Below, in pieces: positions 28,279-55,443 of a stretch of 64,000 nt of DNA (within the stretch, counting starts at the first letter, position 1; each line of letters starts with the position of its first letter). A model generated the notes under the pieces. It worked only from the letters and a program-made list of their open reading frames with translations, made no database searches and was not told the DNA's origin. Source of the stretch: Stutzerimonas nosocomialis (lineage in GTDB: Bacteria > Pseudomonadota > Gammaproteobacteria > Pseudomonadales > Pseudomonadaceae); NCBI RefSeq assembly GCF_005876855.1, contig NZ_QLAE01000006.1, positions 62,001-126,000 on the forward strand. Direction: 5' to 3'. A program made the translations under genes and the position numbers.

Positions 28279-28332
28279 GAATAAGACTTTTTAGGCATTA
28301 GAAATGTAGCGAGCACAAGCGAAAGGAAGGAG

Positions 28333-28691
28333 GAGAGTCGATCTGTAAGCCGGGTTCTGTCGAGGACAGCCATTCCTCTACGACAGCCATCACTGACTGC
28401 CTCTAGCAACCTACCCGGATCCAGCGCGGGCCACGCCAATGGATCCCTATTTGGTCTTGCTCCAAGTGGGGTTTACCTAGCCACGGACTGTTGCCAGCCG
28501 TGCGGTGCGCTCTTACCGCACCTTTTCACCCTTACCGGCGCCGAAGCGCTTAGGCGGTTATTTTCTGTGGCACTTTCCGTAGGCTCACGCCCCCCAGGCG
28601 TTACCTGGCACTTCGCCCTATGGAGCCCGGACTTTCCTCCCTCCCGCTCTGCAGGCAGAACGGAACAGCGACTGTCCGATCGACTCTCCGC
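28333..28691 (-). ncRNA. rnpB: RNase P RNA (type A)
   Basis: The minus strand begins AGAGTCGATCGGACAGTCGC and ends with the complementary CAGATCGACTCTCC, the P1 helix of bacterial RNase P RNA. Inside are the conserved GGAAAGTCCGGGCTCCATAG block, the GGGTGCGCCAGG-type region represented by CCAGGTAACGCCTGG, and the 3' AACCCGGCTTACAGA. This is the catalytic RNA that matures tRNA 5' ends. The position between mraZ and rsmI is as in other pseudomonads. The ends are accurate to a few bases. Confidence 0.95.
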
Positions 28692-51277: not shown

Positions 51278-51306
51278 GCTGCATTATTCATGCAGCTTCG
51301 TATAAT
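51278..51306 (+). promoter_or_regulatory. algW promoter region: -10 box and overlapping palindrome
   Basis: TATAAT at 51301-51306 is a consensus -10 element in front of the intron and algW. No clear -35 box is seen; instead a perfect 7-base inverted repeat, GCTGCAT-TATTC-ATGCAGC (51278-51296), covers the -35 area. It lies in the short gap shared with the divergent nif3-like gene and may be an operator for both. Confidence 0.55.
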
Positions 51307-52372
51307 GCCGCCACCTGTGCGACACGTGTGTACGTGTCGTGGTTGGTCTGGTTCACTGCACCATGGCTCCAAATCCTTTGATATCAAGGGGTTGATGCCT
51401 AAAACAGCAGTCAATGTACCGGCTTTGCCTGGTAATCCTACGCTTCGGACGCTCTGCGTTTTGTCGAAGCGAGGCAATAAATCTGCATCAATTCGCACCC
51501 AAAATGGGTCCGCAATGGGGTGTAGAAACCAGAAAGTAGCAATCCAGCCTGGCTCGATTGTTACAAATAATGTCTAACCCATGGGGTGAATTCCGCCCTC
51601 TGGGCAGATTTCGTCCCTCACGTTGGGCATAGAGCCTTTATCACCGTCGTGAGACGTTGGGGGACGTTGAACCAAGCACGGAGCGTCAAGCTCCGAATCG
51701 CATTGCTCAGCTCTGCTTGTTCAGGGAGTACCGAGCCTGGCGTGTACCCGCCAGTTCATTAGATCGGCATGCGTTGGGGGCCAACTCCAAGGTGTGAAGC
51801 CTGATTAACAATGTCTCGCTCGCAAGAGGGTGTTATCCGGTGACGGAGAACGCTTCGCGTCCGAATTGCACGGACGTGTCGAGGCTAATGACCCAACCCG
51901 CATGGCTAACACATGTGAATCGTCGCCAGAACCTCCGTAAGCATTGACGGGCCTACGGCAATTATCGGCCCCAGCCAAACGGCAACGCAGTCGGTCATCA
52001 CAGTAGGTGAGTGTGATGCGGTACCACGACGACTGCCGGGGGAAAGACGAAGCCTAAACGGGGAATTGATGCGACTCGGGGAACGTGGCAATCCCGACCA
52101 CTCGCCTGGCCAGCAACATCGGTCAGGCAGGCAAACCGCAAGGGGCGCTGATGGGTGTGGGGAATGGGAGGATGCAAAAAGCGAAGGGCTACCTGTAATG
52201 GGTGGCATACCGGTTGAGATATTACCGGCAGGGGCAACCCTGGCTGACGTGCATCTGGTTTACGAGCGTAAGAAGAGCCGCTGATTCCAGCGATAACCAA
52301 ACGACCCTATGGGCGACTACTGCCCATAGGGGAGTAGTCCGTCCTGAATGTCGTGCATATCAGGAGGACTGT

Positions 52373-54103
52373 ATGAAAACGCAACCAGCAACATCGGTCG
52401 CGTCTGCGTCCTTCGACGGGGTGAAGAACTGGCACGATCTCGATTGGGCCAGAATTCAACAAACCGTTCGGAAAACGCAGCTAAAGATTGCGCAGGCAAC
52501 TCGGGAAGGCGACTGGCGCAGGGTTAAACGCCTGCAACGACTGCTGACCCACTCGTTCTATGGTCGCTGTCTGGCCGTAAGACGAGTCACGGAGAACCGG
52601 GGTCGTAAGACGCCGGGTGTCGATGGAGAAACCTGGGGAACGCCTCAGGCCAAGCTCCATGCCGTGGGACGTCTGTCGAAACAACGAGGCTATCGGCCCA
52701 GACCGCTGTGGCGGGTATGGATACCGAAGCCCGGTAAACAGGAGAAACGCCCGCTGGGTATCCCGACGATGTTGGATCGGGCCATGCAGGCGCTGTATCT
52801 CCAAGCGTTGGAGCCTGTCGTGGAAAGCACCAGCGATCCGAAGTCCTATGGATTTCGCCCGGATCGTTCGACTGCTGACGCAATGGTTGAGCTTTTCCAC
52901 CTGCTGTCGCCGCAAACGGCGCCGGTCTGGATTCTGGAAGGTGATATCAAAGGGTTCTTCGACAACATTAACCACGAGTGGCTGTGCCGGAATGTCCCGA
53001 TGGATAGGAAGGTGCTGCGCAAATGGTTGAAGGCCGGGGTTATCGACCGGCGACAACTCATGGCTACGGAGGCCGGGACGCCGCAGGGAGGAATTATCTC
53101 GCCCTGTCTGGCAAACGCCACCCTGAATGGTCTGGAGACTCAGCTGAAGCGCCATCTGGCGCAGAAGCTGGGTGCCATGAAGGCCAGGAAGATCAAAGTG
53201 CAGTGTGTGCGCTATGCGGATGACTTCGTCGTGACAGCAGCCTCGAAAGAGCTGTTGGAAGAGGAGGTCAAACCCTGGGTAGAGCAATTCCTGTCGGTAC
53301 GAGGGGTTGCGCTGTCACGGGAGAAAACGCAGATCACGCATATCCATCAAGGCTTCGATTTTCTGGGGTGGAATTTCAGGAAGTACGTGCCGAAATCGCC
53401 GTATAGGAACGCCAAGCTGTTGATCAAACCCTCGAAGAAGAACGTCTCGGCGTTCTATCGGAAAGTGCGCGAGATCATCAAAGGCAGCGGGGCTCTGACG
53501 CAGGATGCGTTGATCGGCCAGCTGAACCCGGTACTGAGAGGGTGGGCGCAATACCACTCCCCGGTCGTGGCAAAACAGACCTTCAGCAAGCTTGATCACT
53601 TGGTGTTCTGGCGACTCTGGAGGTGGGCGAAGCGTAGGCATCCGAAGAAGTCGGCTGACTGGATCAGGAATAAATACTTCCGATCCATAGGCAGGCAGAA
53701 CTGGGTGTTTGCGTATCCCTACAAGAATGGCAAGGGAGAAAGGCAGTTCCGACGGCTGTACGGGCTGGCGGAAACCGCAATCGTGCGTCACAAGCGTCTA
53801 CCGGGTGAGTATCAGCCCTACGACGCGATGCAGGAGCTGAAGTGGGAAGCGCTGAGGGTCAAACGGATGCAGCACTCGCTGCGTTATCGGGGGCAGATAC
53901 TCAGCATCTTCCGCAGGCAGAAGGGGCTTTGTGCCCTGTGCGGACATGCGATCAACAAGGAAACCGGCTGGCACGACCATCACGTCATCAGGCGTGTGGA
54001 CGGCGGGCCGGATACTCTGAGGAATCGTATGCTGCTTCATCCCAACTGCCATGCGCTGGTGCACAGCCAGCGTGAAAAGGTAGCTCTGCGATATGGAGGG
54101 TAA
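52373..54103 (+). CDS. ltrA: group II intron-encoded reverse transcriptase / maturase with HNH endonuclease
   Basis: 576 residues. The reverse transcriptase fingers and palm include TPGVDGETW, RPLGIPTMLDRAMQALYLQALEP, the GTPQGGIISPCLAN box and the catalytic VRYADDFVV. The maturase (X) domain lies around residues 350-480. The C-terminus is a complete HNH endonuclease: CALCGHAIN, DHHVIRRVDGGPD, and LHPNCHALVHS. The chosen ATG follows AGGAGG by 5 bases; an in-frame extension upstream is intron RNA. Proteins of this class splice the intron and help it integrate into DNA. No frameshift or missing motif is seen. Confidence 0.96.
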   Translation: MKTQPATSVASASFDGVKNWHDLDWARIQQTVRKTQLKIAQATREGDWRRVKRLQRLLTHSFYGRCLAVRRVTENRGRKTPGVDGETWGTPQAKLHAVGRLSKQRGYRPRPLWRVWIPKPGKQEKRPLGIPTMLDRAMQALYLQALEPVVESTSDPKSYGFRPDRSTADAMVELFHLLSPQTAPVWILEGDIKGFFDNINHEWLCRNVPMDRKVLRKWLKAGVIDRRQLMATEAGTPQGGIISPCLANATLNGLETQLKRHLAQKLGAMKARKIKVQCVRYADDFVVTAASKELLEEEVKPWVEQFLSVRGVALSREKTQITHIHQGFDFLGWNFRKYVPKSPYRNAKLLIKPSKKNVSAFYRKVREIIKGSGALTQDALIGQLNPVLRGWAQYHSPVVAKQTFSKLDHLVFWRLWRWAKRRHPKKSADWIRNKYFRSIGRQNWVFAYPYKNGKGERQFRRLYGLAETAIVRHKRLPGEYQPYDAMQELKWEALRVKRMQHSLRYRGQILSIFRRQKGLCALCGHAINKETGWHDHHVIRRVDGGPDTLRNRMLLHPNCHALVHSQREKVALRYGG

Positions 54104-54159
54104 TGTTAATATCGCCACCATAGTTGCCGGCCAGCCATAGGCTGGCTTTTCGTAAACTT

Positions 54160-54194
54160 GAGCCGTATGCGGTGAAAGCCGCACGTACGGTTCT
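54160..54194 (+). other. group II intron domain V
   Basis: GAGCCGTATGCGGTGAAAGC and its continuation fold into the 34-base catalytic hairpin with a GAAA tetraloop and the AGC triad at its base (arms GAGCCGTATGCGG and CCGCACGTACGGTTC). This is the most conserved part of group II introns and it is intact. Confidence 0.93.
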
Positions 54195-54279
54195 TAGGGG
54201 GGGACGGGCCAGTAATGGCCTGTCCCTACCCGACTAAGGGCCGCTCCCTCTGCCCGCAACTCACCGGACCTGGAACGCA

Positions 54280-55443
54280 ATGACCAACGCCCTGCGTTTT
54301 TTTGGCTGGCCCCTGGTGGTCGGCGTGCTCGTAGCCCTGCTGATCATCCAGCGCTACCCGCACTGGGTCGGTCTCAGCCCCCATCAATACAGCCTGCAGC
54401 AGGCACCGCGGACGATCATGCCGCAACAGCAGGGACCGCACTCCTACGCCAGCGCGGTCAGCAGCGCCGCTCCCTCGGTGGCCAACCTCTACACCACCAA
54501 GATGACCAGCCAGTCCGAACACCCGATGCTCAAGGATCCGGTGTTCCGCCGCTTTTTCGGCGAAAGCCTGCCGCGCCAGCGCCGCATCGAGAACAGCCTG
54601 GGCTCGGCGGTGATCATGAGCCCCCAGGGTTACCTGCTGACCAACAACCACGTGACGGCCAACGCGGACCAGATCATCGTGGCGCTCAAGGATGGCCGCG
54701 AAACCCTGGCGCGCGTGATCGGCAGCGACCCTGAGACCGACCTTGCGGTCCTGAAGATCGACCTGGACAAGTTGCCCGCCATCACCCTGGGCCACTCCGA
54801 CAGCATCCGCATCGGCGACGTGACCCTGGCGATCGGCAACCCGTTCGGCGTCGGCCAGACGGTGACCATGGGCATCATCAGCGCCACCGGACGCAACCAG
54901 CTGGGCCTGAACACCTACGAAGACTTCATCCAGACCGACGCGGCGATCAACCGGGGCAACTCCGGTGGCGCGCTGGTCGATGCCAACGGCAACCTGATCG
55001 GCATCAACACCGCGATCATTTCCGAATCCGGCGGTTCGCAGGGCATCGGCTTCGCGATCCCGGTCAAGCTGGCGCTGGAGGTGATGAAGTCGATCATCGA
55101 CCACGGCCAGGTGATTCGCGGCTGGCTCGGCGTGGAAGTGCAGTCGCTGACGCCGGAACTGGCCGAATCCTTCGGCCTCGAAGGGCGCCCCGGGATCGTG
55201 GTGGCGGGCGTCTATCGCGATGGCCCGGCCGAGCGTGCCGGCCTGCAGCCCGGCGACCTGATCCTGACCATCGACAACGCCAGGGCGGTGGACGGACGCA
55301 GCTCGATGAACCAGGTCGCCCGCGCGCGCCCGGGCAACAAGATCGCCATCGAGATACTGCGCAACAACAAGCCGATGACGCTGACCGCCGAGGTGGGCAT
55401 GCGCCCGGTGATCACCGCCGAGCCTGACAAGCCGGACGAATGA
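54280..55443 (+). CDS. algW: periplasmic serine protease AlgW (DegS-type)
   Basis: 387 residues: one N-terminal membrane anchor (about 7-25), a trypsin-like domain and one PDZ domain (about 285-370). The catalytic triad is His124 (TNNHVTAN), Asp154 (PETDLAVLK) and Ser228 (NRGNSGGAL). AlgW senses misfolded outer-membrane proteins and cleaves MucA to free the AlgU sigma factor. Its own promoter is separated from it by the 2.9 kb group II intron, so its expression depends on intron splicing, read-through, or a further promoter. The ATG has GGAACGCA before it. Confidence 0.95.
   Translation: MTNALRFFGWPLVVGVLVALLIIQRYPHWVGLSPHQYSLQQAPRTIMPQQQGPHSYASAVSSAAPSVANLYTTKMTSQSEHPMLKDPVFRRFFGESLPRQRRIENSLGSAVIMSPQGYLLTNNHVTANADQIIVALKDGRETLARVIGSDPETDLAVLKIDLDKLPAITLGHSDSIRIGDVTLAIGNPFGVGQTVTMGIISATGRNQLGLNTYEDFIQTDAAINRGNSGGALVDANGNLIGINTAIISESGGSQGIGFAIPVKLALEVMKSIIDHGQVIRGWLGVEVQSLTPELAESFGLEGRPGIVVAGVYRDGPAERAGLQPGDLILTIDNARAVDGRSSMNQVARARPGNKIAIEILRNNKPMTLTAEVGMRPVITAEPDKPDE

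What the first reader, a model, noticed from the sequence alone, without database searches (positions are those of the whole stretch)
51301..54280. Group II intron inserted at the edge of the algW promoter
TATAAT is at 51301-51306 and the intron begins at 51317 with GTGCGAC. The presumed recognition bases (ATGCCG and CCACCT) overlap and directly follow the -10 box. If transcription starts 6-8 bases after TATAAT, the transcript would carry only a few bases of 5' exon and lack the IBS2 pairing, so the intron could not splice normally from this promoter. algW would then be expressed with a 2.9 kb leader or from another promoter. This could alter envelope-stress (AlgU) signalling, and the intron may be using a host promoter for its own expression.
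Basis: partly seen in the sequence, partly recalled or inferred. Interest (0 to 1): 0.72.

Follow-up and report, generated by a model that had tools for sequence, protein, structure and literature searches.

The report
Group II introns that target promoters
The mobile self-splicing intron just behind the algW promoter is not a chance case: it belongs to a family of bacterial retroelements that repeatedly insert about ten bases downstream of promoter "-10 boxes" of housekeeping genes and tRNAs, a target preference I did not find described.

Summary
A group II intron (51317-54234, 2918 nt) starts 10 nt after TATAAT (51301-51306). Intron-free relatives show the predicted junction, TATAATGCCGCCACCT^TAAGGG (20 of 23 same-genus loci match TATAATGCCGCCAC[C/A]TTAA; no intron in the stretches examined in any of the 23).

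It is the rule for a lineage. In one clade of 45 distinct target-site classes, 42 carry TANNNT, with the make-up of a sigma70 -10 element, ending 9-12 nt (mode 10) before the insertion; outside the clade 0 of 40 at 9-11 nt (1 of 40 at 12). Seven clade classes were fetched after the prediction was written down: 6 of 7 fit at 9-11 nt, 7 of 7 at 9-12.

The intron's EBS2 pairs perfectly with the last three bases of the local box plus two more in 41 of 45 introns (shuffled mean 2.3). In 30 of 45 classes a family-identified gene or tRNA follows in sense within 206 nt (glnS, dnaX, dapA, ftsY, efp, lptD, three tRNAs). A copy identical over 2319 nt sits at another such box in another species.

The predicted 5' exon is only 3-6 nt. 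The recognition mechanism and splicing are inferred, not shown.

The parts
51301..51306 (+). TATAAT, -10 element of the putative algW promoter
   Evidence: conserved in intron-free same-genus relatives
51304..51308 (+). IBS2 (AATGC): last three bases of the -10 box plus two
   Evidence: perfect pairing with EBS2
51311..51316 (+). IBS1 (CCACCT), last six bases of the 5' exon
   Evidence: pairs with EBS1, 5 of 6 here
51317..54234 (+). group II intron, 2918 nt, GTGCGAC...CCCGAC
   Evidence: Rfam; ends fixed by intron-free relatives
51941..51945 (+). EBS2 (GCATT)
   Evidence: covariation with exon -13..-9, z 11.3; 5/5 in 41 of 45 introns
52005..52010 (+). EBS1 (AGGTGA)
   Evidence: covariation with exon -6..-1, z 16.9
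51736..51883 (+). part of domain I (Rfam group-II-D1D4-7)
52373..54103 (+). intron-encoded protein, 576 aa: reverse transcriptase, maturase, HNH
   Evidence: Pfam; closest solved relative 6me0, E 2.8e-169
54158..54234 (+). domains V and VI
   Evidence: Rfam Intron_gpII
54235..54279 (+). 3' exon: rest of the algW 5' leader
54280..55443 (+). algW-type protease gene (trypsin-like and PDZ domains)

Best explanation
The intron belongs to a lineage of group II retroelements specialised to insert, in sense, just downstream of sigma70-type -10 promoter elements. Shown: 42 of 45 distinct target-site classes carry TANNNT 9-12 nt before the insertion; EBS2 of the intron RNA is complementary to the last three bases of the local -10 box plus the next two, and EBS1 to the six bases before the insertion. 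Inferred: the ribonucleoprotein finds its DNA site by EBS2 and EBS1 pairing plus contact of the protein with the unpaired, near-invariant TA of the box; it reverse-splices into the non-template strand at about +4/+5 of the transcript, leaving promoter and gene intact and itself under the host promoter. It is then transcribed with a 5' exon of about 3-6 nt, and the host gene is expressed through a spliced or a 2.9-kb leader.
For: Clade of 37 site classes with support 1.00: TANNNT at 9-11 nt in 34 of 37, 27 at exactly 10, against 0 of 35 outside and a background of 0.4% per position. After the prediction was noted: 6 of 7 new clade classes at 9-11, 7 of 7 at 9-12, and 0 of 2 new classes outside. 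EBS2 pairs 5/5 in 41 of 45 introns; shuffled mean 2.3, maximum 7 of 500 shuffles; the register follows the box when the spacing is 9, 11 or 12. The EBS2 base opposite the last T of the box is A in 44 of 45 and T in L076, whose box is TATAAA. The unpaired third base of the box is A/T in 31 of 45 in flanks of 39% A+T (p 5e-5). A family-identified gene or tRNA starts in sense within 206 nt in 30 of 45 classes, while only 29 of 291 TANNNT in the window lie between genes and within 200 nt upstream of one in sense (simple ORF calling). Introns lie on both divergent promoters of the ppiB-glnS region, each in sense (L163, L036). L198 is 100% identical to the window intron over 2319 nt at another box in another species. 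Intron-free sites seen at algW, glnS and efp.
Against: The -35 signal is weak: at least 4 of 6 matches in 29% against 15% in controls, mean p about 0.09; TTG in 7 of 45 against 7%. The usual start position, 7 nt after the box, is a purine in only 14 of 45. L173 lies at a stop codon (box CAAGAT) and L057 in a coding frame, so a promoter is not strictly needed. No transcription start is measured at any site. For 15 of 45 classes I have no family-identified gene within 206 nt. The non-clade class L174 has TANNNT at 12 nt.
Confidence: 0.75

Rival explanations
1. Motif recognition only. The protein reads T and A and EBS2 has a nearly fixed A, which together give TANNNT; promoters are over-represented only because insertions elsewhere are purged or are not expressed.
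For: L057 (TACAAT, spacing 10, EBS2 5/5) lies in a coding frame and L173 at a stop codon. The -35 signal is weak.
Against: The unpaired third base and the covarying fourth and fifth bases of the box are A/T-rich as in real -10 elements (31, 27 and 35 of 45). 30 of 45 classes precede identified genes or tRNAs. Even under this reading the effect is promoter targeting.
Confidence: 0.3
2. The ribonucleoprotein enters the RNA polymerase open complex and uses its single-stranded non-template strand, which would explain the narrow 9-12 nt spacing.
For: Insertion is on the non-template strand, near the downstream edge of the bubble (geometry; bubble limits recalled).
Against: Polymerase would cover the site; EBS2 pairs with bases that sigma holds (recalled); L057 and L173 are not obvious promoters.
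Confidence: 0.15
3. An isolated insertion at algW that happens to abut the -10 box and cripples splicing.
For: The predicted 5' exon is about 4 nt and lacks IBS2.
Against: The same geometry in 42 of 45 clade classes, many in front of genes expected to be essential.
Confidence: 0.03

Closest known systems
Group IIB introns with CL-type protein (sequence match to PDB 6me0; that this is the T. elongatus T.el4h intron is recalled)
   Same: Protein similar over residues 18-566, E 2.8e-169; D1, D5/D6, EBS1 and EBS2 present.
   Different: T. elongatus introns are described with relaxed recognition of the distal 5' exon by the protein (PMC2882425, passages); here a fixed -10 box is present.
Bacterial introns with a large 5' insertion, including the Azotobacter groEL intron (Michel et al. 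2007, seen only as cited in PMC4465626, passages)
   Same: A longer 5' region, and the sister groups on the tree include stop-codon introns (L152, and L175 at what reads as the groEL stop).
   Different: The target here is a -10 box and not a stop codon. The paper was not held, so I cannot say what it reports on promoters.
Group IIC introns inserting after terminators or at attC sites (PMC4424553, passages)
   Same: A lineage specialised for one regulatory DNA motif.
   Different: Different motif; the protein here has an HNH domain, while IIC introns lack the En domain.
Ty3 retrotransposon (recalled)
   Same: Insertion at a fixed distance from a transcription start.
   Different: Unrelated element and chemistry; Ty3 is aimed by transcription factors.

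Membership tests
Mobile group II intron, IIB/CL type | GUGYG 5' end and AY 3' end | tested here: met
   GTGCG...AC, ends fixed by intron-free relatives
Mobile group II intron, IIB/CL type | D1 and D5/D6 | tested here: met
   two Rfam hits above gathering score
Mobile group II intron, IIB/CL type | protein with RT, maturase and endonuclease domains | tested here: met
   Pfam, closest solved relative 6me0
Mobile group II intron, IIB/CL type | EBS1-IBS1 and EBS2-IBS2 pairing | tested here: met
   covariation across the clade
Mobile group II intron, IIB/CL type | splicing and retrohoming activity | not testable with these tools
   needs RNA and mobility assays; indirect sign of movement
Group IIC intron | protein without En domain | tested here: not met
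   HNH domain, E 2e-8
Group IIC intron | insertion after terminator hairpins or at attC | not tested
   no hairpin or attC scan of the sites was made; the sites have -10 boxes instead
Subset with large 5' insertion (Michel et al. 2007) | large insertion at the 5' extremity | tested here: inconclusive
   5' end to protein start 1057 nt here and 739-1313 nt in the clade, mostly 548-681 nt outside, with exceptions and some doubtful 5' ends there; paper not held

The most novel reading that the evidence does not exclude
A fourth target specificity of bacterial group II introns: promoter homing. EBS2 works as a guide against the -10 box and the protein reads the invariant TA, so the element can colonise sigma70 promoters in general, lives under host promoters, and splices from a 3-6 nt 5' exon, possibly by entering the open complex. 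At leaderless genes the same geometry puts the intron directly after the ATG (L096, L101, L090), which would explain initiation-codon introns.
Probability: 0.55. Interest if true: 0.9.

Novelty: new variant of a known kind. Interest (0 to 1): 0.83.

Why it matters
A 2015 review counts three target specificities for bacterial group II introns: homing sites, terminators and attC sites (PMC4424553, passages). A lineage fitted to the core promoter would be a fourth. It would explain how a retroelement can live at the head of housekeeping genes and tRNAs without breaking them, and it makes questions testable: how a ribozyme splices with almost no 5' exon, whether its protein reads a -10 box as sigma does, and whether targeting depends on transcription. 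Because EBS2 can be changed, it also suggests a way of placing DNA at promoters in laboratory strains.

Tried and rejected
Other copies in the own genome: one match only. Near-identity search of plasmids: no match. A strong -35 element was expected and not found. A purine at the usual start position was expected and not found. A published algW start site: one search, listing only, nothing usable. Ten paper searches were counted; I saw their listings, none of which showed a promoter-targeting group II intron, and read passages of PMC4465626, PMC4028801, PMC2882425 and PMC4424553. My first alignment of algW upstream regions used several loci in the wrong orientation; one search replaces it. Counts rest on classes merged at 3 or fewer mismatches in the last 16 nt of the 5' exon. 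Of 218 loci with a protein match, 40 were dropped for want of a usable 5' end. I re-examined 14 of the 40: L041, L201, L129 and L235 show no 5' part; L043, L196 and L227 lack part of it; L094 and L204 are cut by the record start; L153, L092, L184 and L185 stay unresolved; L176 starts GTGCAAC at a groEL-like stop codon. A few 5' ends outside the clade were picked by pattern and may be wrong (L178, L189, L127).
Full report
THE OBSERVATION. The window holds TATAAT at 51301-51306 and an intron start GTGCGAC at 51317. Rfam scores part of D1 at 51736-51883 and D5/D6 at 54158-54234. The 576-aa protein at 52373-54103 has RT, maturase and HNH domains. Of 23 same-genus algW loci, none shows the intron in the stretch examined and 20 match TATAATGCCGCCAC[C/A]TTAA, which fixes the ends at 51317 and 54234. 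The search of the own assembly found one copy.

THE LINEAGE. Searches with related proteins gave matches in 52 of 398 family genomes, 9 of 369 class genomes, 11 of 293 order genomes, 29 of 298 genomes of another genus of the family and 8 of 300 genomes of another order, at the E-value limits set there and with own or centre genomes counted; 80 of 99 loci were kept from genome contigs, and six loci were taken from plasmid and phage records. Of 218 loci with a protein match, 178 had a readable 5' end; they fall into 85 5'-exon classes. On the protein tree 45 of the 85 form one clade with the window intron (support 1.00), with sources such as Stutzerimonas, Pseudomonas, Azomonas, Marinobacter, a Cellvibrio MAG, Massilia, Polaromonas and Cupriavidus. 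Some classes concern the same gene: L166 and L217, L048 and L071 by the start of the downstream protein, and L036 and L078 (both glnS), so independent genes are somewhat fewer than 45.

THE TARGET. In the first 37 clade classes, 34 have TANNNT ending 9-11 nt before the insertion (27 at exactly 10), against 0 of 35 classes outside and a background of 0.4% per position. Most of these 37 were in view when the idea arose. I then wrote the prediction down. Eight further clade classes were added; one, L203, had been seen just before, so seven are strict tests: 6 of 7 at 9-11 nt and 7 of 7 at 9-12; L217 among them has the same downstream gene start as L166. One older class outside, L174, has TANNNT at 12 nt. 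Over 45 sites the box reads T43 A45 T26 A21 A35 T44, the profile of sigma70 -10 elements (recalled). The misses are CAAGAT (L173), CATAAT (L101) and TATAAA (L076).

THE PAIRING. A scan of intron columns against the exon found one strong partner for -6..-1 (window 52005-52010, z 16.9) and one for -13..-9 (window 51941-51945, z 11.3), with 44 introns. With the register left free, EBS2 pairs 5/5 with the last three bases of the box plus two in 41 of 45 introns; shuffling EBS2 among introns gives a mean of 2.3 and at most 7 in 500 shuffles. The register stays on the box when the spacing is 9, 11 or 12. In L076 the EBS2 base facing the last position is T instead of A, matching its box TATAAA.

THE GENES. 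Family searches of downstream proteins named peptidylprolyl isomerase B, PBP1a, peptide deformylase, LptD, LipB, RadC, GlnS (two sites), CbiE/CbiT, TcdA, ribosomal L28, DinG, FtsY, DapA, CoaBC, EF-P, DnaX, trigger factor and RibF (some hits are below NCBI's cut-offs, as for PpiB and LptD), and DarP, SecB, FimV, a cytochrome c assembly protein, an SLT transglycosylase, a MoCF protein and an IS66 transposase. tRNA-Met (L087), tRNA-Leu (L238) and tRNA-Arg (L060) follow at three sites. With AlgW that is 30 of 45 classes with an identified gene or tRNA starting in sense within 206 nt. Of the other 15, L059, L166, L046 and L057 were searched without a hit; for the rest I have no identification (L071, L217, L047, L089, L091, L145, L130, L203, L226, L198 and L173). 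In L096, L101 and L090 the last three exon bases are an ATG in frame with the gene and six bases after the box, the layout of leaderless genes. L173 sits at a stop codon and L057 in a coding frame. L163 and L036 lie on opposite strands of one intergenic region, before ppiB and glnS, each in sense.

MOVEMENT. L198, from another genome of the genus, is identical to the window intron over 2319 nt but lies behind another box, TATAATGCCGCTCACAT, at spacing 11; its 3' part is lost. L044 and L226 are 96.4% identical over 1000 nt, with the same EBS1 and EBS2, at two sites. Intron-free sites are seen at glnS (exact in L255, L257, L261, L262 and L264 of 25 loci) and at efp (15 of 18 loci; L275 carries the intron, L286 and L290 have diverged).

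HOW IT PROBABLY WORKS. IBS2 lies upstream of any start directed by the box, so its near-perfect match cannot serve splicing of that transcript and is best explained by DNA targeting (inference). The TA of the box is not paired with the RNA and is near-invariant, which suggests protein contact (inference). Insertion leaves the core promoter intact and gives the intron a host promoter; the predicted 5' exon is 3-6 nt. Whether the polymerase takes part is open. Against a full promoter signature stand the weak -35, the few purines at the usual start position (14 of 45), and L057 and L173.

NOVELTY. PMC4424553 (passages) names three target specificities. PMC4465626 (passages) reports that Michel et al. 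2007 described a monophyletic subset with a large 5' insertion; that paper was not held, so part of this may already be known. The paper searches, listed under Tried and rejected, showed no promoter-targeting group II intron in an open-access library.

Noticed in passing
L202 (CP075775.1, 1-2837): A P. aeruginosa 'plasmid' of 2837 bp, annotated as circular, is exactly one related intron joined head to tail (…CCCGAC|GTGCGAC…): circular intron DNA, a tandem copy, or an assembly artefact.
   Followed up: partly
L204 (KT887559.1, 1-2930): The phage phi3 record starts one base before a related intron, which ends just upstream of a tRNA-Met gene; host DNA may be included in the phage record.
   Followed up: partly
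L144 and L107, intron 5' ends: Introns of another lineage lie in a sequence that reads like a tRNA-Gly gene (recalled resemblance; no tRNA search run there).
   Followed up: no
51278-51284 and 51290-51296: An inverted repeat GCTGCAT/ATGCAGC directly upstream of the -10 box; a similar GCTGCA block recurs in relatives, possibly an operator.
   Followed up: no
28330-28687: RNase P RNA class A on the minus strand.
   Followed up: no
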